DNA from: Cyanodermella asteris
Lineage: Eukaryota > Ascomycota > Lecanoromycetes > Ostropales > Stictidaceae
Length of the DNA stretch: 64,000 bases
Direction of reading: 5' to 3'
Assembly (NCBI GenBank): GCA_900618795.1
Contig: UYJD01000004.1
Span: forward strand, 1,261,110 to 1,325,109
Below the pieces are notes generated by a model that worked only from the letters and a program-made list of their open reading frames with translations, ran no database searches and was not told the origin of the DNA. The stretch's first letter is position 1. Every line of letters starts with the position of its first letter. Shown here one piece after another: positions 4,817 through 29,602 of the stretch. Made by a program: the position numbers and the translations under genes.

Positions 4817-5640
4817 TGTGAAAGTGTAAGAGAGAACAAATACAGAGACCAGAAAGACAGAGACGTTGACACCGGTAGGATTGACACGCGGGAGAGGTTG
4901 ACGAAATTCGAAGGACGGAGTCAAAATATTGCGTCCTGCTGGAAAGAAAGTCGAAGAAACCGAAGCTCGGGCCACCCCCGAGTTCGACGCCGAGCTTGGC
5001 AAATCTGGACCCAGCCCATGTACAACACTTTGCTTTAGCTTCAGATATGCTGCACCAGCTTTCGTGATCACTGGAAAATCATCCAGAAATACAACTTGCC
5101 CATGTGAGCGATGACCAGGTGGACTCTTCAAGACCACATAGCGACTTGCGGTACAGCACATGCATAAGCTACGAGCTCGCAATGAGGTTGCTTATTGATT
5201 TGATACACTATCTAACCATCTTTTGTGTTCATACAAGTCATTATGTCGAGAAGGATTGCCCGAGGACCCCAAGCCCGACCTTTCGTGCTCCATTGGGCTT
5301 CGAATTGTCGTATGTTTCGCCAGGCCACCCCAGGCCCTGCTCCATTGAGCCTCAAATTTTCGAAGCCGTATGTGATGTTACGCGGACAAGACAAGAGATC
5401 TCAAATGGTGATATTGAGCAGTCAGAGGCCAATCCGTTTTTTTGATGCCGGGTGGCCAACGTGATGACCCAATCAGTGGCACGAACATCCTGCCAGCAGC
5501 CGTTGTTTTGCCTGGTTTGTCGCCGAGAAACACCCGCAGATCAATTTCTGCCTCGAACTGCCATCCCGTTGAGGGCACTTATGGGTGGCAACAATCAAGA
5601 CAAGCCCAATCACCAACCCGGAGATTCTCAAAGAAACATC
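4817..5640. other. Intergenic: HSP60 promoter and 3' flank of Myb gene A
   Basis: An 824-base spacer should contain the HSP60 promoter (reading leftward) and the 3' UTR of gene A. I see no further gene in it. Heat-shock elements were not resolved by eye. Confidence 0.5.
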
Positions 5641-7230
5641 TCAGATGTCGAGATAGACATAATCGCCTGCAACCTCCCGCCAGAGGCCCGCTCTGCTCTG
5701 GGAAAGGGGTTCCTGGTCCTGAGTGTCAAAGTCCAAGTCCCCGTGGATGTCGTATTCAATTGATGCTGGCCGAGTCTCAGGGCCCACCGGGATGCCGGAA
5801 TGCACTGGCGACAGCGATGCTGGTTGTTGAAAGTGAAGACCTTGCACGTTCGTCTGTGCAAAGGGGTCGGGATCGAAGTCGTCAGCATATGCCACGCCAA
5901 AGTTGAGGTGAGGTGCATGAGTCTCGAAGCCATGGTCGTGTTCCAAGTCGCTTGCATAAGCGGAGTTCGCCACACCCAATTGTGCGATTCCAAAGTCGTT
6001 AGCAAAGCTGTGGGCTGCAGGTTTCTGGTCAACGTTCTCCTCATGGTCCCACGTGGTCACCAGATCTCGATACTCCTGGAGCTTTTTTGCAAACTGGAAT
6101 GTGGACACCTTGCTGGTACCATTGCCTTGCGAGGGGAAAACAAAGCCACGAACAGAGTCAGCTCCAGAGGCCTCAAGCTTGATCTTCTTAGGGCTGCCAG
6201 CTATTGGTGCCAAATCATTGCGTTCCCGATCATCTTCAACATCGTCATCGTCCACTACACGAACACGCTTCATCGGACTCGACTGACGGTCGTCGATGGT
6301 ATAGTTGGTGCTTTGGCCAGTGCTGTCTGCGCTGTCGTCGGAGTCGTCGCTGTCAGCTTCCCGTTTGATGGGGATGACTTTCTTGCGAAGCCGTGGCGTG
6401 TTCTTGGGTTTTTCGCGCGCCTGCCTGCTCGGTTTGGGACGGGCCCTGATGCTCGTTCCCGGCTTTCTAGAGACTCGATTTGCAGCGCCATTCGGATCGT
6501 CACTCTCCTGTGTCGCCGATTTGCCCAGTGCCATCTGCGCGTTCCGTCTATCACCGAAGCCAGCAGCCGCCATCATGCCGAAGCTTGCTGGGTTGCCAAC
6601 GGGCTCTTTCGGCTCAGGAACGGCAAGCCCCATCTCGTCACGCTTCTTCGTCTCCTTCGCCATGTGCTGAAGAAGGGCATTGCCTGCGTATGTCAATCGA
6701 TGATGAGCGGTTTTGACAAAGCATACGTACCGCTGACGTGTGGGCCGACTGCAAGGTTTTAGCAAACGATACATTGGTCTCAAGCAGATGGAAACGTACC
6801 ATAGGCAGCGACCTCTCCCCAAGGAAACTTGATCCCTCGTCTCGCCATGACACGCGGGATTGCCAAAAAGCACAGCATGTCCATCTCGGCTGCTTGAATA
6901 TTAGCGTAGGAACGCGAAGGCAACGGCAATCAAGAATGCGGCCGGCAAAGATGGTTTCTGCGAGTGCCATCCCGTGGAATGATGGCATGGACTAGACATC
7001 AATGCCAATGGTCGTCGCGGCAAGTGACAGGTCTGGGGCCATATCCCGCAAAGGGGGAGACAGGGGCGTCTCATCCTAACCATGCCCAAGCTGTGGGGAT
7101 GCATTCTTGTCACGAAGGAGCTTCACTTACTGTCCCATCTGTCTGCTGTTAGTTCAAATTGCCCTAATATCAGCTTGCTGGCCACTCACCTCACAAGCTT
7201 GCGCGGTGCGTTTCGCTCGGCACGGACCAT
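5641..7230 (-). CDS. Myb/SANT-like nuclear protein, array gene A
   Basis: Five exons (minus strand) restore a complete domain: 7190-7230, 7131-7138 (8 nt), 6800-6892, 6731-6748 (18 nt) and 5641-6683; 400 residues. Residues 14-69 form a single Myb-like helix bundle: RWDTAEMDML opens helix 1, KFPWGEVAAYV is helix 2, SGNALLQHMAKETKKRDE is helix 3. Without the 8-nt exon the conserved Trp is lost, and without the 18-nt exon the turn before helix 3 is lost. The rest is low-complexity: basic stretches (PRLRKKVIPIK, SPMKRVRVV, SPKKIKLE), acidic runs, and a C-terminal half rich in Asp, Phe and Gln. IKREADSDDSDD and IKLE fit SUMO consensus sites. It is the largest member of the array. The role is inferred to be nuclear DNA or chromatin binding; the target is unknown. 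Upstream exon choice is supported by frame and homology only. Confidence 0.75.
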
Positions 7231-8777
7231 TGTGGCGACTCAATCGCAGTGGACTGGCTGGTATCAAATCAGAGAGTGACGGAACAGCTCGTTGAGGCTC
7301 CAATGTGGCTGTGAATGAGAATGAGGGTGTCTCAAGGGTTCTCAATTATCAAAGAGGACAAAGAATGTGACAATAATCAATCAAGTTGGCGAGAGCTTAG
7401 TGGTGTTGAGTCCTAACTATGTTGGTGGTCACCTCCGGGATGAGCCCCATGAAGCTGTGAAGCAAGCAAGTAAGCAAAGACTGTTGCGAGTGGTGTAAGT
7501 GAAATGCGGGTGAAAAAGGGGTAGAGGTAAGCTCAGAGGTGAGAGCAAGCTCAGAGACAAGAATTTGAAGGGCAGTGACTTCTTGGCAGGTGAGTGAGGG
7601 TACGGCCACGGTCCCAGCCACAGGCGATTTCTATTGTTGTTCTCCGCGCCTGCCTTTGCGAGAAGAGAGGACATGGGCGGAAGGTGCTTCAGAAACCCGA
7701 CTGCTTCCAGCTTCCAGGCATGTGCTTCACGTCCTGTCACTTACCGCAGTGCGTTCAGCATCGATTGCGCAGTTGTGCTGATACTCGGGACGGCATCGTA
7801 GCTCTCTTTCGCGGCGCTTCGTCTTCTTCGAGGCGAATTGCTTTGCAGCCTTCCTCCGCGTCTTGAACGCTGCTTTACATCTCCGACAATCCGTTCTTCC
7901 AAAATGATTGAGGAGGTTTACGACTTACTCGTTTGAGCTCCAACTGTGACAGACTCAAAGTAGCCACGAGCAGAGTCTGCGCTGTCTTTTCCCATTCATC
8001 CCGGCAAAGTACTTCATACCTACCACCTAGACGACGTTCGCAGTCGCTCAACGTCAACCTTGCTCGCTGATCTTGATGGCACGTGCAAAGTATCAGCGTT
8101 TGCCCCACAGTTATCTTCATTGGCAGAGCTGATGCGCTGTCCACTGCAGTGGCGGATCGTCCAGCTCTGTTTAGGAATCAAAGGGGACAAAGGACGCGCA
8201 AGAACGCATATCAGCTGGCATCTTCGCTATCAATTGGGCTGCGTGCGAATAGACCTGTAATCGGGGGTTTCCAGACCTCTATACTGATGCAGTCCTCGAT
8301 GTGAGATGCTTTAACCTCAAGGCTCCGTGATCGGCGGAATGAAGTCGTTGCGCAGATACCTGTTTCAGCAATACATTTGTAGGGTAGCGGGTTGAAGTGG
8401 CTATACGGAAGGTCTTCTGACTGCCTGACTACATCTTACACAGGCCGTTACAGCATTGGTAGCAGAAGACATCGAAAAGGATATGCGCAACGACTTAACT
8501 TGCCCGCTCGCATCGAAACACTCTAACAATCTTTTGATCTACATCACCGTCACAATCATGGCACTGGCAATGGAATTTGGATAGCAGACAACGTACTATC
8601 ACACACGCGAGTTGTCTCGGTTGCTGGGGATGTATTACGGAGCTACCTTTGTCCATGTCACAGGTGCCTGTTTCAAAAACACTCATACCTTGACCCGCCC
8701 CTGAAGATAAGCCACAAGTCCTTTTCATGAGACATACCATCCCCAAACTCTACACACTGATTCGCGCTCAACACTGG
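7231..8777. other. Intergenic: promoter of gene A, 3' flank of gene B
   Basis: This 1.5-kb spacer has no supported gene. On the minus strand, 7450-7740 is pyrimidine-rich, as is common in fungal promoters just upstream of the start, here serving gene A. No Myb-like remnant was found in any frame. Confidence 0.4.
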
Positions 8778-9331
8778 TTAGCCACAAGCAGCCTCCTCGA
8801 GCTTCAGGTCCACGTGTCCAAGCTCTGTCTCCTCCTTGAAGGAGGCTTCATCGTCTTCTTCTTTCTTGACGACTCCGAAATCATCGTCATCATCAGACTG
8901 GTCTTCAGTGACGGCAGGCGAGGGCAGAGCGCTCAAATTCATCCGCTTGCGCTTCTTAGGAGCTGGTCCCTCCGCAGTCTTCTTGTTCGCCTTGTGCTTA
9001 AGTGGTTGGACGTTGGTGTCCCGTCCTGTCGGACCCTGAGACTGATGGATACCATGCGCCTTCATCAAGCGCTCATACCGCTTCGCACTGCAAGAAGTCA
9101 GCTTGTCAGATTTTGATCACGGTAAGCCGTGGTGGTATGGAACTGACGCTGCTCCCTTGCTGGTAATATCACACTCCTGCGCGACTTTGTCAAAGTTGAC
9201 CTGAAGCATGGGTTAGATCGAGGTAGAGCATGTTAGTAGTCTGAGTGGAGTGTCACCTTGCCGTTGTTGGAATGCCTGATGCATGCAATGAGGAAGAGGA
9301 GTTGACCATCGTTGGTCGCAGACTTTGCCAT
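8778..9331 (-). CDS. Myb/SANT-like nuclear protein, array gene B
   Basis: Exons (minus): 9257-9331, 9148-9200 and 8778-9087; 145 residues. The N-terminus MAKSATNDGQLLFLIACI is helix 1, VNFDKVAQECDI helix 2, and GAAAKRYERLMKAHG helix 3 of the Myb-like domain. Unlike most members it has no Trp before helix 1. Intron 1 is phase 0 between helices 1 and 2; intron 2 is phase 2 inside helix 3. B thus carries both intron positions that are otherwise split among other members. The tail has APKKRKRMN (NLS-like), an acidic stretch, and SUMO-type sites VKKE and LKLE near the C-terminus. Its N-terminal ATNDG is shared with gene D, suggesting the two are close relatives. Function is inferred as a small nuclear DNA-binding protein. 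Confidence 0.8.
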
Positions 9332-9960
9332 ATTGATTCAAGGCGGTGACGTGAGAAGACTTGAGTGTGCTGTCTTTGGTTGAGGTTGGTATTGAGGAAG
9401 ATGTTGTTCGTGAAGCAGCTGTTGATCAAACGTCGGAAGAATAGTTTCAGAAAGGATGTCTTAAGCAGTGAGGCAGAGAGCTAGAATGTGTAGGGCTTGG
9501 GGTCTTGCCTTTCTAGACACGAATGAGCCAAGCGGGCAATCCATCTGTCTGTGAGATAACAATGAGCCGCTGCACCTGCATCCTGCCCGTTGCCGCAGTA
9601 GCGAAGTGTATGGTGAGCTGACACTGATACGTTGCCAAACACCTGCTTGCCATTTACAAGAACCCTCCCGGTTTACGGTTACGAAGGACATCCCCATTTG
9701 CTGCTCAGGTTCGTATCACGTATAGCTGCAGCTCTTGCCTTCCCAGCCCGACAACCTTTGCCAACTCACACCATCACATAATCATAGAACACCTCGCTTG
9801 TCAGAACACCATAATCGAGGGAAAGTCTACTATATTGAGTGTTTTTGACCAGTCCCTTTGCCATCTAACACTGTTCCAGTCTTCCTTTCATTCACACGCA
9901 CCACTGAGCAACTGCAGCCAATTTCCGCCTACCTTCCAACTCAAATCCGACTTCTCAATC
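9332..9960. promoter_or_regulatory. Divergent promoter between Myb genes B and C
   Basis: A 629-base spacer separates two start codons pointing outward. The right 150 bases before gene C are C/T-rich, typical of fungal 5' leaders. No further gene is seen. Confidence 0.4.
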
Positions 9961-10366
9961 ATGTCTACTCAGGATGGGTTGTTTATGCTTCAGGTCATTC
10001 TGAATCTGAAAGATGCAAAAACCCCGGATGTAAGTTGAGCATCATCACCGGATTCGCTGAAACTGACTGGACCAGGCCAATTGGGATGCCGTGGCCGCGG
10101 CAATGGGCCTGAAATCTGCTGGAGTGGCGCGGACCAGGTTCGGCCAGATCAAGAAGAAGCTCGTACAGATGAACGGTCTGCAGCCTGCGACTCCAAAGAA
10201 AACAATGCCGACGAAGAAGCGCAAGCTTGCGGAGTCCGACTTAAAGTACGTGTTCCACCACGTCTGAGTGAGCATAACTAACATCAGCGACAGGACCAAT
10301 TATGCCAGCGATGCGGACGAATCCCCTCTGATGAAGAAATGGAAGAAGGAGAGTGACTCGGAGTGA
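9961..10366 (+). CDS. Myb/SANT-like nuclear protein, array gene C
   Basis: Exons: 9961-10029, 10076-10245 and 10288-10366; only 105 residues, the smallest member. MSTQDGLFMLQVILNL is helix 1, ANWDAVAAAMGLK helix 2, and GVARTRFGQIKKKL helix 3, the textbook form of the fungal Myb-like domain. Intron 1 is phase 0 between helices 1 and 2, the same position as in B, D and I. The second intron splits the short basic tail (TPKKTMPTKKRKLAE, NLS-like), and the protein ends in a basic/acidic mix, KKWKKESDSE. With almost nothing outside the DNA-binding unit, it could act as a competitor or a partner of longer paralogs (inference). Confidence 0.8.
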
Positions 10367-10622
10367 GCTTGTCGATTTTCAGCAAGCCAGAATGGAGGTG
10401 TGGGCAAGATATTATGGCGCGAATGCATATATCGCCACTGCTGTTACTGCAAGGGGTGGTTATGGCATCAATTGATGAGATCTTCACGTGACGTGTGCGG
10501 TAGTGCTTGTTGGCTTCTTAGCTGTCCAAGGTGGTATTTCAAAATCCGCTGCGAGCATATAGATGTAGTAGTCGACCTGCCCGCCATCATCTGTGATGCT
10601 GCTTGCTCTCCTCACCGCGACC

Positions 10623-11202
10623 TTAGAACAAGTATTGGTTCAAGCCATAGTCCGCCTCCCGACAAACTTGAAGGAAGTCTTCTCTCATCTCTGCAACCTC
10701 CATGTCCTCGGCAGCGCCCATGGTCTGCTGATCAGCTGCCTCCTCTTTGATCATATCATCCGGCTCTGGCTCTGGCTCTGGCTTGATATAAGCCTCGTCA
10801 TGCTGTGTTGTCGTGGTCGCAGTCTCCTCATCCGGAGCTTCGGGTTTCGCGTGGACTTCCTCAACCTGTTTGGCTCTGTTCCTTCGATGCACTTTTTTGC
10901 GTTGGATGGTTTTCTGTTGGCGCCCTTCTTGCGGGTCTTCGGGTTGGGTGCTTGCGGTACTGGTGCCTCCCTCCATGTGCTGTCTGAACCTGGAGTATCT
11001 CATCCGGGCTGCGTGTCCGTTCGTGAGCTCCACGTTCCCAGCTACCTCGTCCCAGTCAATCTGTAAGTCAAGTCAGCTTTGATGAGAGTCATGGCCAAGA
11101 GCCATTGTATACCGATTTTGTGTTAAATTGCCTGAGGATGGCGTACAAGAACCTCGCTGTAGGTCCATCGTTTGTTGCGGTGCTTCGGCGTAAGCTTGCC
11201 AT
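10623..11202 (-). CDS. Myb/SANT-like nuclear protein, array gene D
   Basis: Exons (minus): 11113-11202 and 10623-11060; 175 residues. Helix 1 is ARFLYAILRQFN, helix 2 SIDWDEVAGNVEL, helix 3 GHAARMRYSRFRQHM. The single intron is phase 0 between helices 1 and 2, at the same place as in B, C and I; the helix-3 intron of B is absent. The tail holds a basic cluster (IQRKKVHRRNRAK), then Glu/Pro-rich sequence with SUMO-type IKPE and IKEE sites, and ends in LNQYLF. It runs tail-to-tail with gene C, with 256 bases between the stop codons. Confidence 0.8.
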
Positions 11203-12915
11203 GATACGGGACTCGTGATGTTGAGAGGAAACGGTACATACAGGTTGCCCTGCCTTGTCATCTTAATTCTGGGCTTCCAGGTAGCTATTTGTCGGCCCAG
11301 CCGCATTTCAGTTTCCAGGTAGCTACGATACACTCTTTGAAAGACAAAGGAGAGTTCTCCAAACTCATGCGGGCCGCCGATAGTCAATTCTATACGACAT
11401 AGAAACCGAGACTGGTACCGTCAGGAGCCTTGATCGGAGCTTGCCGAAGGCGCTCGCGGACCGCTGCATCGGCGATGTCAAAGAAGTTGCACCATTTAGT
11501 CATACCAGCAGTGGCCTACGAATACAAGCTTGCCTGGCAAGAGGCATCATTGCTTGAGCTGATGATGAGAAACACAATCTGGAGTCACAGAAGCTTCCTG
11601 GTATACGATATACAGGCACAGACATGAAAGGCGACTGGTGGTTATCGTGATGAAGCAGCCCGAGCTCCGAAAGGAGAGACTAGTAGTAGATCCGCGCACA
11701 TGACGTCTCATCAGGGACATGGCCGTATTCGGAAGATTGTCCAAGCGCCCAAAGCCGCAAAACCATGAATTCGTAAATCCTCGAATCTCTGATTCTCTGA
11801 AAGTCCGATTCGGACACAGAAGTTGCACCTTCTCGGAGCACAACGTTGGCCGATCTGATTCCCAAAGGCAAGATCACATCCATGGCGGCACGCTAGCAAG
11901 TCATGCCCAGCCAGCTGCGTCAGCTTCACATCTACTTTCGGCGCTCAATGCTACTATCAAATTGCATTGACCGATCATTTGATAAAGCCATGCTGGAGTC
12001 GCCCTGTTCTCCGGATGTGGGCAGCGACTGAAGAGCAAATTCGCCACGATTTCATGACCTCTGCGACATGGATCGTACAGTCTATAACGCTTTGCGTCTT
12101 CTATTATGCCTATCTTACTCGTGACCGATATGTGCCCCTAGCCGAGTAGTGCCCGCGTGTATCGTCGACTGTTACGAAGGATGGGACCGGTCTTGATATC
12201 ATGTCTACCACTATTTGGCACGGGCTTGACTATCCGAGAACCGATGCTGCAGAGTCCGACGAAGGCTTTCAGGCTCCGCGAGATTACCCCAAATCCAGCA
12301 GTCCAATGGCCCCGCAATACGCTGTGACGGAACGAAGTTTCAACGTGGAAAGCCGGTATCGATCGGATCATGGTGTATACCGATCGTTCACGTTGCGTTG
12401 GCAATTCTGAGAGGTTTTCGATACCAAGGCACGGAACAGAAGCAAAAGCATGGTTCTATGGGATGCCTGAGTCCACGTATGAGCTGGCAGTGCATATGAA
12501 CCGGTGAAGACCTGTTGAGTGAGCTATTACCCTTGTTGATGAGGGGCACTACGATAAACTCACAAGGATGGCGCACTAAGGATCACTGATCTGGAAGGAC
12601 CTGCGAGGTGTCTGCGGGCCCAATGCACGATAAAACGCAGAGTGATCGAAGTATGAGTGAGTGGTGGCAGTATTATCCATCGATTGCCCGGACAACAGCT
12701 CACGCCTTCCCCGAACATTCGATCCCCTCATAAACACTTGCCAACAAATACTTGCATTGTTTCCCATCCTCAGCCAGCAACAACAAAGCATATCACCTCG
12801 CCCAGCTACTTTACAATCCAGAACAGCCAACTCGCCAGCTAGCTTCGTCTATAACGGCTCGCTACCATTCACAAAACCTCTCACGCGTTCACTTGAGAAA
12901 TCATCGACCGCAACT
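11203..12915. other. 1.7-kb divergent spacer between genes D and E
   Basis: The spacer should contain the promoters of D (leftward) and E (rightward); the last about 200 bases before E are C/A/T-rich leader-like sequence. No gene or decayed Myb domain was recognised, though short frames are present on both strands. Confidence 0.4.
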
Positions 12916-13388
12916 ATGCCGATCAAGTGGAACGCTGATGCGGATGTCGCACTGCTGATGGCAATGATTGAGGTGTCCGGCGTCAAGACCTCCTCCAAAG
13001 GGTTTTGGAAAGCCGTGATTGAGAAGATAGGCGAGGGAACGGACCGGTCCTTTGAGTAAGTGAAGCCCACTTCTTGAACCCTGAGACTTGCCTCCTACCC
13101 TTGTATGCTCCAGACTAACCCTGGTCAATCAGACAACATTACGCCGCTCTCAAGAAGCGCCGTGACGCCAATGGCATGGGACTTGCGGGTACTTGCAGTA
13201 CGCCTACCTCGACACGCACGCAGACCCCACGAAAGCGGAAGGCCGGCGCCGCAGAGACTCCCACGAAGAAGCGAACGAAATTTCTGAGCTACGAAGACGA
13301 TGGCAACAACGAAAGAGACGGGATTTTGGATGAGAAGCCGGCTGAGGTGGTGCCGAATCTTGAGGAAGATGGGGAAATTCCGTTCTGA
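12916..13388 (+). CDS. Myb/SANT-like nuclear protein, array gene E
   Basis: Exons: 12916-13055 and 13133-13388; 131 residues. MPIKWNADADVALLMAMIEV gives the conserved Trp and helix 1, FWKAVIEKIGEG helix 2, and RSFEQHYAALKKRRD helix 3. This is the clearest family member. The intron is phase 2 within helix 3, as in B. The tail has QTPRKRKAGAAETPTKKRTK, a bipartite NLS-like segment, then acidic sequence ending EEDGEIPF. No psi-K-x-E site is present. A 5' leader with CT/CA-rich sequence precedes the ATG. Confidence 0.88.
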
Positions 13389-13861
13389 ATTGGCTAATGC
13401 TACTGAGGGACACGCGAAGCTAATTTACGGCCCATGCATGTATGAAGTGAATGTGAGACGGAAGGGCAAGTCGATCGAGTATCATTGTTTGCAATTGCCA
13501 TAGCAGCTGTCAAACAGATGTTTGAACAAGTTAGGCGGTGAACGAGTAACGGTGGGTTAAATGTGAACGATTGCACTAGCATGAAGCATTTAGCTCTCAA
13601 AGGATCAGTTCCCTGTAACTTAAGTACATTACAGACCCTGCTGGTAGCGACATTCTGGAGCAGCCAACGCACGGCCGAGGGTGTGCGCTGTCCTCCTGTC
13701 CTCCTGCCCTCTACAGCTTTACTGCATTCTCACCTACAACGTAAACACATCAGCTACCGCGCTCGACACACTCACCCCTGTACCCATTTAATCTTTCCCA
13801 AATTTATCATTGCATCCCACACGGCAACGATAATAATCATAAGCCACTCACAATCGCAAAT
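13389..13861. other. Intergenic: gene E 3' flank and gene F promoter
   Basis: A 473-base spacer between two same-strand genes. The last about 150 bases are pyrimidine- and A-rich leader sequence of F. No gene seen. Confidence 0.4.
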
Positions 13862-14424
13862 ATGCCACCTTGGAGCCCCGAATCGCAGCTCAAGTTGCTT
13901 TTGACCATGATTTGTGCCATCGACACAAAGTCGATCCCGCCATGGACTGAAATCGCCAGCAAGATGGGACCCGAGTACACCGCAGAAGCCGTCCGTAAGT
14001 CCACCCACCCACCCACATCATGCCACTTGAACTCCGTACATTGCATTACATACCTGCCTGTTCACAATCGAGCTTCGTGCCGAAAGCAGCTCACGTCCAT
14101 CGGCCAAGCTAACATTCCTTTCCAGGCCAACAGTTCGGCAAGCTGAAGCGCACAAACGCCGATGCTGGCGGTACCAGTGGTGATGATACTCCTACTGGTG
14201 AACCGACTCCGAAAAAGACGCCTCGCCGTGCAACACCTTCCAAGCGCAAGGCGAACGGCGGCGATGCCGCTCCCGGAACGCCGATGCCGAAGAAGAGAAA
14301 GGCCGCTCTGCCAAAGTCCGCTGCAAAGATCACTGAGGAGGATACCGAGGACGACGATACGAAGCTGGCGCAGGCCGTGAAGGCTGAGCCTTCCGACGCG
14401 GACGCCACTGAGCCGGACTTCTGA
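13862..14424 (+). CDS. Myb/SANT-like nuclear protein, array gene F
   Basis: Exons: 13862-13994 and 14126-14424; 143 residues. MPPWSPESQLKLLLTMI is the Trp plus helix 1, PPWTEIASKMGPEY helix 2, AEAVRQQFGKLKRTN helix 3. The intron is phase 1 at the Arg opening the QQFGKL helix, close to the helix-3 introns of A, B and E. The tail is dominated by TPKKTPRR, PSKRK and MPKKRK basic repeats typical of nuclear proteins, then an acidic end with SUMO-type VKAE and terminus ATEPDF. E and F lie in tandem on the same strand and are the most alike pair in layout, so they may be a local duplicate pair. Confidence 0.88.
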
Positions 14425-15093
14425 AAGCTGTCGGAGCGATGTGTCTCTAGCGTAAGCGGAATGCGGACATGATGCGCTGTGCAACCAGATTGAAGATCGA
14501 TTTACGGATAGAGACAAGGGAGAAAGACACTGGATGCAAGTTTGTGCGGACAGAGCTAGTCAGTAGATGATTGACGAGAATGGGCGCCGAATACATTACG
14601 GAAACACAAGTGTGGTATCAGGTCAGCCGTTTTTTGACACTATGTAGATCTCATGCATGGCGTGTAAAGTAAAGTCATGGCAGCATTGTGGAGACGGATA
14701 CTTACAACAGTGCCTGTGCCCACATTTGCGGGAATATCCGACCACAAACGTGAACAGTTCCGAGGATTGGACTCGTAGCTGGACCTCCCCACGTATCTGC
14801 AGCAGCACGCAACCGGCGAATGCGAATGTTGGACCAGCTAATGGGACCATCCCAGTTCTCGAGGACCCTGGCTTAAAGGTAAGGATCGAGAAATTCAGAA
14901 CGCCATTCATGGCACGGCGGGTAAAAGACCGGAACTATTTACCGCAACATCATTCTTGTATAGCTTCTCGCGAGTCTCGCCTTGCGTCCAGCAGACTGGT
15001 CTCAGAACACTAAGAAAGCCAGTCCCGTCCGTCTGCAAAGTTTCGAGGTCTATGGCACACTTCTGCTGCACGATGAGTTATACAATCATCCCC
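14425..15093. other. Convergent spacer between genes F and G
   Basis: A 669-base spacer between two stop codons should hold both 3' UTRs. No gene recognised. Confidence 0.4.
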
Positions 15094-15769
15094 CTACCAC
15101 AGTTCCGACATCTTGTCTGGTGTCATGTACTCCGCAGCACCATCGAACCGCCCAATGTCGCCTCCACCGGAGCTAGGAGCTAATGCAGACCCGTCATCAA
15201 ACTCATGAGCGAAGTCGTCCGTCTTAGTCTTCTTCGTGGGGCTTTCTTCAGTCTCGCTCTTGATCGGCACAGGCAGATCCTCATCCTCATCCTCATCATC
15301 GTCGGGCTCCGGCCTGACCTCGAGGTCTCGCTTGCGCTTTGGAGTCTGAGCCGGGGTCCGGGACTTCGGTGTGTCCTTGCCTGGAGTTTTAGACTTGCGA
15401 GGAGTAGCAGGAGTCTGCTTGTCGGTAGTGATGGTTCCATTGCCCTTGCCAAGGCGCTTCAACTTCGCAATGCGTTCGGATATGGCCTTCGGCGTGGGTT
15501 TGTCGTCTCCGATTCCTGCATTGGTGGTAAGCATGTGAGTAAAGCAGAAATTGGTACGAGTAATGCGTACCCCAAGCATTGGAAATTGCTGAGTAGTCGA
15601 GAGTTACATTGCAATTCTCCAAGATCTTCACCAGCAACTGTACTTGTCAGCGTGATGATGGCATAACACTCCGTTGGTCTCATACATGCGCGTCGTTTTC
15701 TGAAGCACTGTTAGCAGCAGAATGATCTTGGGACGAAGAAACCTCACCAGGAGTCCAACGAATAGGCAT
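15094..15769 (-). CDS. Myb/SANT-like nuclear protein, array gene G
   Basis: Four exons (minus): 15748-15769, 15686-15699 (14 nt), 15571-15637 and 15094-15515; 174 residues. MPIRWTPENDAHLLVKILEN supplies the Trp and helix 1, and it exists only if the 14-nt exon is spliced in. LDYSAISNAWG is helix 2 and TPKAISERIAKLKR helix 3. The third intron is phase 1 immediately after helix 2, at exactly the same place as in A and H. The tail has repeated TPRKSKTPGKDTPKSRTP motifs (possible phospho- and DNA-contact sites), the basic TPKRKRD, a long Asp/Glu run, SUMO-type IKSE followed by acidic residues and SP, and ends KMSELW. Confidence 0.82.
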
Positions 15770-17414
15770 CGTGGCTGCTTTCGGTAATGAACTTGTGGGT
15801 TTGGTGAATAGTGTTTGGCTTGAAGGACAATTCGCGAACTCAGGATACGAGAAGATAGCTGTAGCAAGCAGAGAATATGTCAGGGTTGAGGAACTAAGAA
15901 GTCTGAAGTTCGTCACCAGGGCAATCTCTCTTGATAAGTGGCAGAGATGCAGCTGAGCGAACGGTACACAGCTCACGGCAGGAGCGGCTTGCGCCTCAGA
16001 TATGCAGGAGAGGAGATTGCAGAAGTGAGTTGGCCTTCGGTGTCATCCTCAAGTGTGCTCATCACCTTCGTCGTAGCAAAGTGCCAAAGGACACGCGCTG
16101 GAAGCAACGGTCACGACAGGCTGAAACAATTGTACAAGTCAGGCCACGCCACTGTTGCTCTGAAGTATCAAATAGGCGTCTACCGTAGCCACAGTCCTTC
16201 GCCACGGCTTTTGTCTCGTAACGAATTCGTTCGGAGCGAATGTACCTGGTGTGCGGTGCGCGCATGAGAAGGCCCGGCAGCAAATCGACACGACACGGTG
16301 CACGCCAAGCCTGTCCTGAGCTGAGGGAACACTTAGCAGAAAGGTAAACTAGCATCTCCTTCAGCTGTCTATCTATGCTACGCCCACACCAAGTCCGACC
16401 GCGTGAGTCCAGCGCTAATGTCGTAGCTCGACCTGGACTCGCCGCTCCCGTATGGATCTCATGTCTGTGTCATGACTTGTGCGTAGCACTGATGGCCAGG
16501 TTGACCATACGTCCGCGTCGGCCGCGCTTGTCTAGCCATCAACAACCTCGGTGAATATTCCTTCTGCCTACAACTTGTTTTCCGGGCAAATCGCGGCCTG
16601 ACAGCAGTTGTGCTGGCTCTGTTCAAGTGTGATCGGAAGACAGGCTTGCTCCCCCGATGCCGTGACTCGAAAATGAGCTGGCAATCTACCCATTGGGTCG
16701 TACACGCGGCCTGCAAGGTGTGCTCGACAGCATGGACATGCCGTCTTTCGAAATCAACCTTATCCCATGCCTAGGACCCCGGAGGTGCTTTGAATTGAGA
16801 CACTGTGGGTCATGATTTCATCTGTTCTGTAGCCTACAATACTTACAGGCCTGTATGCAAAATCATGCAGCGGGTAGAGTCTTGAGAGCAATGTTCCAGG
16901 ATTGGAACGGGAACGCTGCATGTCCTCCGAAAGCCATTGTAATAAGTCAGTTTCGTGCATGCGATGGCAGTAGTGATAAGCAGCTGAGAGCTGATCGGGC
17001 AAGCCAGCTTTCCTGTCTGCCTTCCACTTTCTCGCTGGCGCCCTGGCGCGGTTTCTTGTCATTACGGGAAATGCTGTCGCCAGTGCAGCCAGGCAGTGAA
17101 AGAGCTCGCTGCTCACTTGCCATGTACTAAAGACTTCGTGGGCTCCTCACTTCTCTGCTCACCTTGTCCATGGTCCAGTCATCTAGATCCCATCCACACG
17201 GTCGTCTCAAACGTTTCCGATTTGCACTTTCCACAAGCAACTCATCTCCCCAGCGATCTACTCAGGCCACTTATTTCCCTATTACTCTTCTCAAGTATCC
17301 CATTGAAGTGACCAAACTTCAACACATTCGGGACCACAGAGCTGCACCGTCTGACCTTTCAAGCCACCGCCAAATCGAGAGCGTATCCCCCGTGCACCAA
17401 CTCCAATAGCGATA
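15770..17414. other. 1.6-kb divergent spacer between genes G and H
   Basis: The spacer should hold the promoters of G and H. The final about 250 bases before H are CT-rich leader. I see no gene or Myb-like remnant in either strand. Confidence 0.4.
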
Positions 17415-18062
17415 ATGCCGGGAATCAAATCAATCATCTGGAATGATTTCAATGACGCACGCTTATTACAAGCCTTGTGCTTCGCGACTGACCTGAGATT
17501 GGACGCCGCTATCGTCCAAAAGATCGCCGTAATTATGGGCAAGTATCTAAAACTTACCATGCTTGTCTATAACTAATTCCGGCTTGCAGGCAACGGTGTC
17601 ACCAACAAAGCGATTCGTCACCGCATCAACACCTTGAAAAACCAGCTGAAGAACAGTAGCACAGGCAGCCCAAGCCTTGCTTTGACTCCATCGTCGCGCA
17701 GGCGCACGGCACCAGCAGTCAGTACTCCAAAGGCCAGCGCCAAGAAGCGCCGTATTGCCGACATCAAGGCAGAAGACGACGACGACTTGGACGCGGACGA
17801 CCGAGACTTCTTGGATGCTGCTCTACGGAACGGTCCCGCAACGCCTACGCGCAGCCCCAAACGAGCCCGACGAGAGACGCCTCGCAAAGACTACGCCAAG
17901 CTGGCTGATCCGCATGCTGGCGAGATCACCGACGAAGCAGAAGACTACAGGGAGCTCAGGGAAACTCAGCTCAACGAGGAGCACCCGGAATCCGCCAACG
18001 AGGATGAATTTAAGTTCGAAGACAGCGTGTTTGGAGAGGACGAATCCGTCATTGGGTTTTGA
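17415..18062 (+). CDS. Myb/SANT-like nuclear protein, array gene H
   Basis: Exons: 17415-17538 and 17590-18062; 198 residues. IIWNDFNDARLLQALCFA is the Trp plus helix 1, AAIVQKIAVIMG helix 2, NKAIRHRINTLKNQLK helix 3. The only intron that keeps the frame begins GCAAGT and ends CAG, a GC-AG intron; using the nearby GTATCT as donor destroys the frame. It is phase 1 directly after helix 2, the same site as in A and G. The tail has basic PSSRRRTAP, AKKRRIA and SPKRARRETPRK blocks, a SUMO-type IKAE followed by DDDD, a second FKFE site, and the acidic end FGEDESVIGF. Confidence 0.82.
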
Positions 18063-19657
18063 AACGGCTTCGGAGGAAGAATATGGTGAAATGTGGCCGC
18101 GAAAGATAGGAAACATGAATTGCTGCATGTACTCATCTGCTTTGTGTTGTGATTTGGGGACGGGGCGTTCCTTTTTTGTTTCAGTACTTACCAGTATGTG
18201 GGGGAATACGGATCAACGCTGGAATCGGGCGATGAATACGTGCAACTGTATCCAATGATTTTGTCTGAGCCGTAATGGGGCCAAGGCGGGTGGACAGCGG
18301 GATTTCCGGAAATATTCAATCGTCACTGTGAACACACCGGTCCCGGGCCACTCCTCTGCGTGAATTTCGTAGTGCGGATAGAAGTAGCCATGCGAACAGC
18401 CGTACTTACAAGCCTAGAAGTAGACCCAGAAGGACTCGNNNNNNNNNNNNNNNNNNNNNNNNNNNNNNNNNNNNNNNNNNNNNNNNNNNNNNNNNNNNNN
18501 NNNNNNNNNNNNNNNNNNNNNNNNNNNNNNNNNNNNNNNNNNNNNNNNNNNNNNNNNNNNNNNNNNNNNNNNNNNNNNNNNNNNNNNNNNNNNNNNNNNN
18601 NNNNNNNNNNNNNNNNNNNNNNNNNNNNNNNNNNNNNNNNNNNNNNNNNNNNNNNNNNNNNNNNNNNNNNNNNNNNNNNNNNNNNNNNNNNNNNNNNNNN
18701 NNNNNNNNNNNNNNNNNNNNNNNNNNNNNNNNNNNNNNNNNNNNNNNNNNNNNNNNNNNNNNNNNNNNNNNNNNNNNNNNNNNNNNNNNNNNNNNNNNNN
18801 NNNNNNNNNNNNNNNNNNNNNNNNNNNNNNNNNNNNNNNNNNNNNNNNNNNNNNNNNNNNNNNNNNNNNNNNNNNNNNNNNNNNNNNNNNNNNNNNNNNN
18901 NNNNNNNNNNNNNNNNNNNNNNNNNNNNNNNNNNNNNNNNNNNNNNNNNNNNNNNNNNNNNNNNNNNNNNNNNNNNNNNNNNNNNTATCAGCCCGACCCA
19001 CAGCTGTAAGTAGACCAGAAGGCAGTACTGTAAAAAATAGACAGGGCACACAACTACACACGAGACTTTACGAGCGGCACCGATACCGTATCAGCAAGCT
19101 TGCTCGAAAATGTCCTTTGCCGTTTCTGCAACAGTCACATGTATTTCATGACAGAACATTTACTTACGACGGAAGCACGCATGCATGTTCCCCATCCATG
19201 GCGGTCCAAGGGTGTCTGCGCCAGGCCGGACGGCATCGGTCCGATTGGCCGGCGCACAACGCGACGCGCAGGCGTTTATTAGAATCTCCATCGCGCCAAT
19301 GAGAACTCGACCAGACGAGAGCTCCCATCTCCTTCTTTCGATTCTGTGCAATTCCCAGCATTTTGCCTAGCGGTTTTCACAGAGTCGGAGCCGTCGCTGT
19401 TGCTTGCCTGCTCGCTTTGCCTGCGCTCGTTGTTCTCCTTCACTGGCTTTCGCTGCTGCCTCTGCTGGATCCCAGCCACATCTCACCCTAGCATCACAGC
19501 CTTCGCTTCGGCTGGCCATCACTTCGTGGTCGCTTTCTTTGCTTGATACCGCGCCACAAGGGTCTAACTTCTTCCTGACATCTCATACCACACGGAGCAC
19601 ATCTTAAGCAGACGAGTCCTCATCTTGAGCACGTCCAATCACACTTTCAATTACACA
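18063..19657. other. Spacer with assembly gap between genes H and I
   Basis: The sequenced parts hold the H 3' flank and, from about 19300, a C/T-rich leader of gene I. No gene is supported; the long frames crossing here consist mainly of unknown bases. Confidence 0.5.
18439..18985. other. Assembly gap (547 N)
   Basis: Unsequenced bases. Both edges carry a near-identical short motif (AGTAGACCCAGAAGG at 18419-18433 and AGTAGACCAGAAGG at 19009-19022), so a tandem repeat that defeated assembly is plausible. The true length is unknown. Confidence 0.95.
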
Positions 19658-20370
19658 ATGGTCCAGTGGAAGACAATTGATGCGAAGGACCGCCTGCTGG
19701 CCGCTCTACTCGCCGCGCATCCAGATAAAAAGCTGGTAAGTAGCGCAAATGCTGTCTTGTGCATCGTGTATGACAAGTGTATTTATTCCATTGATCGCTG
19801 CGAACTTCTGTCGACTTCTCGTCATCCAATCCACCAACCAAGCTCTTTGCTGACAGCCCTAAACAGCTCGATTACCGCCGAATTGCCACATACTACGGCC
19901 AAGGCACCACATACGACTCCATCGAAGGCCAATTCCGCATACTCCGCGCCGAAGCAACGAAACTCCGCAACGCCGTCGACTCGGGCGAGCAACCTACGGC
20001 TCCTCCTCGCGGCGGCGCAACTCCCAAGCCATCCAAAACTGCCAAATCAACCCCCTTCAAGACTCCCGATCCCAAGACACCTCGCACCACGACCAGCACC
20101 GCCAAGACAAAAAAGCCCTCTTCGATCCTGACCGGTGGCGTAATCTCGGGTCGGGTCACAAAGGCGAAGACCCCAGAGGCGGCGGTGCGAAAGTCGATCC
20201 AGTCATTGTCGAAGACGAACGAAAATGTGCTTCTGAGCGGCATGGGCGAATTTCCGATGGGCACCCAGGAAAGTGTTGTGACGATCGAGGACGATGACGG
20301 CGTGGCGGACTTTGGAGGCTTTGGCGGTTATGATGATGTTGACTGGTCAGGAATCCCGCTTAAGATGTAG
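19658..20370 (+). CDS. Myb/SANT-like nuclear protein, array gene I
   Basis: Exons: 19658-19735 and 19867-20370; 193 residues. MVQWKTIDAKDRLLAALLAA gives the Trp and helix 1, LDYRRIATYYGQ helix 2, YDSIEGQFRILRAEATK helix 3. The intron is phase 0 between helices 1 and 2, as in B, C and D. The tail is rich in TPKPSKTAKSTPFKTP-type Thr-Pro-Lys repeats and ends in Asp/Gly-rich sequence with DDVDWSGIPLKM. There is no psi-K-x-E site. It is the last member of the array and faces the kinase gene tail-to-tail. Confidence 0.8.
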
Positions 20371-20765
20371 GGCTTGTTCCAGCTGAGAACTTGATGATTG
20401 TACTTATTGAGCGTGGCGTTCGGTTGGGAATAGAACTCGGATCCGTGTACGATCTAGGATCAAGTTGAGAGACAATATCGGGAAGGAACAAATTGATGAT
20501 ATGTTTTGCTGCCTGCGAGATCGAACACCCCGTAGAATTTTGGTTCATGCTGCGCAGTCAGTCTTTGTTGCTGTAGAGGCCAACCGCCCCGAGATGTGTC
20601 TGAGGCACGCTAGGAGGGCCTTATCATTTCTAGCGTGCGCGTGTTTGCACGTCATGGTACCGGCCTCATGGCGCAAGAATGAGTCCGGTCATGCCCTCGC
20701 ACATGTTCCAAGAGCCGCGGCTTTGGTGGTTCAGTCATTCGCGATCTAGAATCCATTTTCAGGCC
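20371..20765. other. Convergent spacer, gene I / kinase
   Basis: A 395-base spacer between two stop codons; no gene seen. Confidence 0.4.

Positions 20766-27883: not shown

Positions 27884-29602
<1,719 letters not shown>

What the first reader, a model, noticed from the sequence alone, without database searches (positions are those of the whole stretch)
5641..20370. Nine-gene array of diverged Myb/SANT-like proteins
Genes A-I (5641-7230, 8778-9331, 9961-10366, 10623-11202, 12916-13388, 13862-14424, 15094-15769, 17415-18062, 19658-20370) are consecutive, with no unrelated gene between them. Each has one N-terminal three-helix Myb-like domain of about 55 residues and a disordered basic/acidic tail (105-400 residues in total). 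Strands are mixed (- - + - + + - + +). The domains share the fold pattern and a few residues only, so the array is old; retention as a block suggests shared regulation, selection for clustering, or a local duplication hotspot. The fungal Myb-like family is established; this physical cluster and its role are, as far as I can tell, not described.
Basis: partly seen in the sequence, partly recalled or inferred. Interest (0 to 1): 0.85.

Follow-up and report, generated by a model that had tools for sequence, protein, structure and literature searches.

The report
Ancient linked fungal Myb-like gene array
A run of nine small neighbouring genes in this fungus encodes mostly old, diverged relatives of Myb-type DNA-binding proteins, many with SUMO-attachment motifs in their tails, and some of the same kinds of genes appear close together in distantly related fungi, which hints at a very old gene cluster that has not fallen apart.

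Summary
All nine spans splice into complete frames (my splice models). A profile of 81 homologues from other organisms scores B-I above 1,000 of 1,000 shuffles each; A stays unproven (11 of 1,000 as good). A G-type orthologue folds like Myb/SANT.

Two things go beyond the finding. (1) B, D, G and I each group with orthologues from several classes. In the five assemblies where I saw two types listed, both lie on contigs of equal length; in the four with serial locus tags they are 2, 3, 6 and 10 tags apart, one of them an orbiliomycete. (2) Tails hold the SUMO consensus PsiKxE 11 times against about 1.2 expected; PsiRxE, PsiKxD and the reversed motif are not enriched there; four orthologue sets agree.

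Best reading: an ancient tandem array of small SUMO-controlled Myb-like regulators, retained in linkage. Why it stays linked is not shown; no shared upstream word was found.

The parts
5641..7230 (-). Gene A, 399 aa, five exons; Myb-like N-terminus plausible, membership not proven
   Evidence: Spliced; no Pfam Myb hit; 2.2 bits with the family profile, 11 of 1,000 shuffles as good; two PsiKxE sites
8778..9331 (-). Gene B, 145 aa; PF22980 domain at residues 8-55; B-type homologues in many Pezizomycotina
   Evidence: 86.6 bits; 77 of 191 homologues are nearest to B
9961..10366 (+). Gene C, 105 aa; PF22980 domain at residues 7-51
   Evidence: 33.6 bits; 12.1 bits, 0 of 1,000 shuffles
10623..11202 (-). 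Gene D, 175 aa; PF22980 domain at residues 13-60; D-type homologues
   Evidence: 58.1 bits; 39 of 191 nearest to D
12916..13388 (+). Gene E, 131 aa; diverged domain, no Pfam hit
   Evidence: 9.8 bits all-type profile, 24.3 bits G-type profile; 0 of 1,000 shuffles
13862..14424 (+). Gene F, 143 aa; diverged domain
   Evidence: 12.3 bits PF22980, below cut-off; 34.8 bits, 0 of 1,000
15094..15769 (-). Gene G, 174 aa; G-type, homologues in Lecanoromycetes, Eurotiomycetes, Pezizomycetes, Orbiliomycetes (class names recalled)
   Evidence: 42 of 191 nearest to G, 13.8-62.3 bits; 47.9 bits
17415..18062 (+). Gene H, 198 aa; diverged domain, GC-AG intron
   Evidence: 25.8 bits, 0 of 1,000
18439..18985 (.). 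Stretch that reads N between H and I; content unknown
19658..20370 (+). Gene I, 193 aa; I-type
   Evidence: 30 of 191 nearest to I; 77.9 bits

Best explanation
The array is an old series of tandem duplicates, made before classes of Pezizomycotina split and kept in linkage. Each gene makes a small protein: one N-terminal Myb-like three-helix domain with a positive third helix for DNA (or nucleosome) binding, usually a basic nuclear-import-like cluster, and a disordered tail, mostly acidic, that in most members carries SUMO acceptor motifs. Most likely these are SUMO-controlled chromatin or transcription regulators, probably repressors, with distinct targets per type. Supported by computation: the family (B-I), the age of types B, D, G and I, near-adjacent locus tags of type pairs in other classes, the SUMO-motif enrichment. 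Inferred: DNA binding, nuclear location, SUMO conjugation, repression, and selection for linkage.
Confidence: 0.6

Rival explanations
1. Passive relic: the genes arose by tandem duplication long ago and remain near each other only because filamentous ascomycetes shuffle genes within chromosomes but seldom between them. Clustering has no function.
For: Mesosynteny is described for filamentous Ascomycetes (abstract of PMC3219968). Strands are mixed, no shared upstream word, spacing varies between species (tag gaps 2 to 10).
Against: Mesosynteny randomises order along whole chromosomes, which should open larger gaps than 2-10 tags in 4 of 4 assemblies. Independent placement among an assumed 10,000 genes would give these gaps with a product of about 6e-13, but that is not the mesosynteny null, which I could not compute.
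Confidence: 0.35
2. Histone-tail or protein-binding SANT-like adaptors in a chromatin complex, not DNA binders.
For: Single domain; fold matches include the DMAP1 SANT domain and TIP60 chains.
Against: The third-helix segment is net positive in 9 of 9, which by a recalled rule fits Myb more than SANT; matches also include DNA-bound PHR1, ARR1, TRF1 and TRF2.
Confidence: 0.25
3. Not one family: unrelated small helical proteins that happen to be neighbours, lumped by loose resemblance.
For: 6 of 9 fail Pfam; A unproven; three of six profile pairs match poorly.
Against: B-I exceed 1,000 of 1,000 shuffles, three profile pairs align in register, array ORFs are enriched 12 of 359 vs 1 of 4,955.
Confidence: 0.05
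4. Local duplication hotspot that keeps making new copies.
For: Nine genes side by side; C, E and H are long branches.
Against: No repeat longer than 29 bases in 5600-20400; types B, D, G, I are shared across classes.
Confidence: 0.05

Closest known systems
Pfam PF22980 Myb_DNA-bind_8
   Same: B, C and D pass its curated cut-off; the family is widespread in Pezizomycotina
   Different: A, E, F, G, H, I do not pass it; I saw no account of its members clustering with G- or I-type genes
Classical Myb (PF00249)
   Same: Three-helix fold of the G type
   Different: PF00249 has 21 matches in this genome and none in the array; here a single diverged domain
Single-Myb DNA-binding domains of plants and animals: PHR1/2, ARR1, TRF1/2
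   Different: No credible sequence match in PDB for the B- or G-type profile; different tails
MjkA of Aspergillus niger (Myb-like regulator; passages of PMC6344863 seen)
   Same: Fungal Myb-like regulator
   Different: Said there to have plant orthologues; relation to this family was not tested
Ancient paralogous regulator clusters such as Hox (recalled)
   Same: Old tandem paralogues kept linked over deep time
   Different: No evidence here of collinearity, shared enhancers or a common target programme; mixed strands

Membership tests
PF22980 Myb_DNA-bind_8 | Score above curated cut-off, genes B, C, D | tested here: met
   86.6, 33.6, 58.1 vs 27 bits
PF22980 Myb_DNA-bind_8 | Score above curated cut-off, genes A, E, F, G, H, I | tested here: not met
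   F 12.3, G 11.0, others no match
Myb/SANT fold | Three-helix Myb-like fold (G type) | tested here: met
Myb/SANT fold | Three-helix Myb-like fold (I type) | tested here: inconclusive
Myb/SANT fold | Sequence-specific DNA binding | not testable with these tools
   Only the net positive third-helix segment in 9 of 9
Array family as defined here | Beats shuffles with profile of other organisms' homologues, genes B-I | tested here: met
   0 of 1,000 shuffles each; query seeding by window sequences is a limit
Array family as defined here | Same test, gene A | tested here: inconclusive
   2.2 bits, 11 of 1,000 shuffles
SUMO substrate | PsiKxE consensus enriched in tails | tested here: met
   6 of 9 window proteins, 11 sites vs 1.2 expected; four orthologue sets likewise
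SUMO substrate | Conjugation to SUMO | not testable with these tools
   No proteomics on hand; PMC6673660 not held
Anciently conserved gene cluster | Types linked in other classes | tested here: met
   5 of 5 assemblies seen with two types share a contig length, 4 of 4 with serial tags within 10; pairs only, tag order assumed positional
Anciently conserved gene cluster | Whole nine-gene block in other species | not tested
   No fungal genome collection with context was available

The most novel reading that the evidence does not exclude
A Hox-like case in fungi: a cluster of paralogous SUMO-target Myb-like regulators that formed in the ancestor of Pezizomycotina and has been held together by selection, against a background that scrambles gene order, because the members act as one regulatory unit.
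Probability: 0.3. Interest if true: 0.82.

Novelty: new variant of a known kind. Interest (0 to 1): 0.6.

Why it matters
Filamentous ascomycetes scramble gene order, so a regulator array whose distinct types stay within a few genes of each other from Orbiliomycetes to Lecanoromycetes would be a rare fixed point. It would offer a ready test of why genes stay linked, and it points to a conserved set of probable SUMO targets with a Myb-like domain in genes that the sources mostly call hypothetical.

Tried and rejected
Recent duplication: not supported, no repeat longer than 29 bases. Common promoter word in 400 bases upstream of the nine genes: the best 6-, 7- and 8-mers are matched by shuffles. 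Extra family members elsewhere in the window: none at 10 bits or more. Classical Myb and trihelix: PF00249 has no hit in the array; PF13837 had no hit in the genome, but nothing rang in its controls either, so it shows nothing. Viral contigs as a source of fungal context: none, with B- and D-type alignments. Placing the host fungus in a class with an I-type tree: unresolved, long branches. I-type fold search gave weak unrelated rows. Two PDB sequence searches (B- and G-type profiles) gave nothing credible.

Paralogues elsewhere: PF22980 over the whole genome, exon by exon, rings in B, C, D and one further place below cut-off (C15, 25.0 bits) that overlaps a PF00249 hit of 31.8 bits, so probably a classical Myb. 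Single-protein searches found only the query itself, apart from one chance-level row for A (E 0.78). Orthologue queries P0008 and P0139 gave only chance-level rows and did not find the array, so these searches are too insensitive to exclude diverged copies.

Papers: I saw no description of this cluster in the open-licence library in the listings; two searches were for gene-order and SUMO background. Listings were capped (for example 10 of 205, 10 of 73, 10 of 15) and seen as titles and abstract openings only. Read further: passages of PMC8396895, PMC6344863 and PMC7096222, abstract and outline of PMC3219968.

Full report
What is there. The window lies at G000:C11:1261110-1325109 of a 28.5 Mb genome in 25 contigs. 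Between HSP60 (Cpn60) on the left and a protein kinase plus UFD1 on the right lie nine small genes. I spliced each by hand and every one gives a complete frame: A 399, B 145, C 105, D 175, E 131, F 143, G 174, H 198, I 193 residues (no RNA evidence). Nine ORFs in the gaps, one of them overlapping F on the other strand, were scanned and have no Pfam family at E 0.01. A run of N (18439-18985) sits between H and I and may hide something.

Is it one family? Pfam says so for three only: B, C and D pass Myb_DNA-bind_8 (PF22980) and the other six do not. I searched three times for homologues with alignments that held window genes B-I, E-I and E-I plus 18 homologues. I took all 191 proteins returned (one search lists 120 of its 261) and typed each by its best window domain: 77 B, 39 D, 42 G, 30 I, 3 weakly F (12.7-14.8 bits), none A, C, E or H. 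G assignments run from 62.3 down to 13.8 bits, so the weakest are uncertain. Profiles from 18, 17, 26 and 20 of these (B, D, G, I; chosen by eye for diversity, 81 in all, trimmed against the window domains, no window sequence inside) were run on the nine proteins. With the pooled profile B-I score 9.8-77.9 bits and none of 1,000 shuffles of each reaches that; A scores 2.2 bits and 11 of 1,000 shuffles do as well. The nine were scored at full length and decoys at 75 residues, and the seeding of the searches by window sequences leaves some circularity for C, E, F and H. Profile-profile comparison joins I with G (96.5%) and B with D (92.9%), I with B at 62% over 31 columns; the remaining three pairs are 17.7, 13.6 and 2.7%. 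So there are two firm halves and a weaker bridge. B, C, D and I have a phase-0 intron at the helix 1/2 boundary (place judged by eye), which crosses that bridge.

Age and order. In a domain tree of 51 rows (63 columns, many forks unresolved, bootstrap not settled) B lies with 10 of 10 B-type orthologues (96/95), I with 10 of 10 (99/99), G with 10 of 10 (95/85), and D with 10 of 10 plus C (90/85). A supported split separates B, C, D from A, E, F, G, H, I (96/88), and apart from A these are also the two neighbouring blocks on the DNA. A, C and H are long branches whose place is unsure. The orthologues come from Lecanoromycetes, Eurotiomycetes, Dothideomycetes, Sordariomycetes, Pezizomycetes and Orbiliomycetes among them (species names; classes recalled). 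The pattern is what serial tandem duplication before the classes split would leave.

Linkage elsewhere. I read the listed rows (120 of 261 shown; 27 of 27; 58 of 58) by eye for assemblies that show two different types. I found five, and in 5 of 5 the two proteins sit on contigs of identical length. Four have serial locus tags: Trapelia coarctata G 1419 and I 1421; Lecanora helva I 2187 and B 2190; Lambiella insularis I 6971 and B 6977; Orbilia javanica G 4245 and I 4255. The fifth, Usnea florida (B and D), has tags that do not look positional. In the window exactly one gene (H) lies between G and I, as the Trapelia tags would allow. That tags follow position is an assumption; that Orbiliomycetes branch early in Pezizomycotina is recalled. 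With independent placement among an assumed 10,000 genes the product of chances is about 6e-13; a mesosynteny null (PMC3219968, abstract) would be far less extreme and could not be computed here. Species that showed two proteins of the same type, from what look like different assemblies by tag and contig length (Clonostachys rosea, Neoarthrinium moseri, Orbilia brochopaga), were not counted.

Elsewhere in this genome. PF22980 rings in B, C, D and one sub-threshold place that also matches classical Myb. Single-protein searches gave no paralogue, but they also failed to see sibling array genes, and two orthologue queries missed the array, so absence of diverged copies is not shown. In a 200 kb sample (20 hand-picked stretches, 0.7% of the genome) 1 of 4,955 ORFs reaches 10 bits against 12 of 359 in the array and 0 of 1,280 in the rest of the window; that one lies in an AT-rich stretch without a plausible gene.

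A new handle on function. The tails are net acidic in 7 of 9 (-1 to -15; C and I are positive) and a short basic cluster of the nuclear-import kind is present in 7 of 9 (not D, I, pattern recalled). The SUMO consensus PsiKxE, as stated in PMC7096222, occurs 11 times in the nine tails against 1.2 in shuffles (0 of 5,000 as many), in 6 of 9 proteins (1 of 5,000 shuffles as many); C, E and I have none. In the orthologue subsets (tail taken as residue 71 onward) it occurs 23 vs 3.0 (I, 20 of 30 proteins), 27 vs 4.0 (G, 26 of 42), 43 vs 3.5 (B, 18 of 77) and 78 vs 4.9 (D, 17 of 39), 0 of 500 each. Charge- and order-matched controls: PsiRxE 1, PsiKxD 0, reversed 1, non-hydrophobic KxE 0 in the window, and ratios of 0.3-1.0 in the orthologues except PsiRxE in B (1.9, 2 vs 1.0). 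Shifted spacings are mildly up in some sets: PsiKE 1.6 in the window, 2.4 in I, 2.0 in D; PsiKxxE 1.6 in the window, 1.7 in B. PsiKxE itself is 6.6 to 17.5-fold. Orthologues are related, so counts are not independent, but the four types are separate lines. No set of unrelated nuclear proteins was run as a background.

Mechanism. I take these to be small nuclear proteins that bind DNA or nucleosomes by a Myb-like domain with a positive third helix (9 of 9, segments picked by me) and are switched, probably towards repression, by SUMO on the tail. The domain and motifs are computed; binding, SUMO conjugation and repression are inferred. Why the genes stay together is open: I found no shared upstream word and strands are mixed, so co-regulation has no support yet beyond the retention itself.

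Verdict. It is a new variant of a known kind: known domain superfamily, unusual deep clustering, unreported as far as the listings of the named searches in the open-licence library go.

Noticed in passing
window 18439-18985: 547 bases read N between genes H and I; an assembly gap or withheld stretch. Nothing can be said of its content.
   Followed up: no
window 17539-17589: Gene H is read here with a GC-AG intron, a rare splice type (recalled).
   Followed up: partly
window 9332-9960: B and C are divergently transcribed from a 629-base gap, a possible two-way promoter.
   Followed up: no
L051 4200-5300 (G000:C24, about 204200-205300): AT-rich, stop-rich stretch, of the look left by repeat-induced point mutation (recalled); it gave the only background profile hit at 10 bits or more.
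   Followed up: partly
window 27884-29494: A TIP49 (RuvB-like) ATPase gene lies some 7.5 kb from the array; G-type fold matches include TIP60 complex chains, probably coincidence.
   Followed up: no
D-type rows, such as P0090, P0063, P0066: Several D-type homologues without an organism name score higher to window D (up to 85.0 bits) than the best named row (Blastomyces percursus P0080, 78.8), hinting at unsampled relatives of this fungus in the environment.
   Followed up: no
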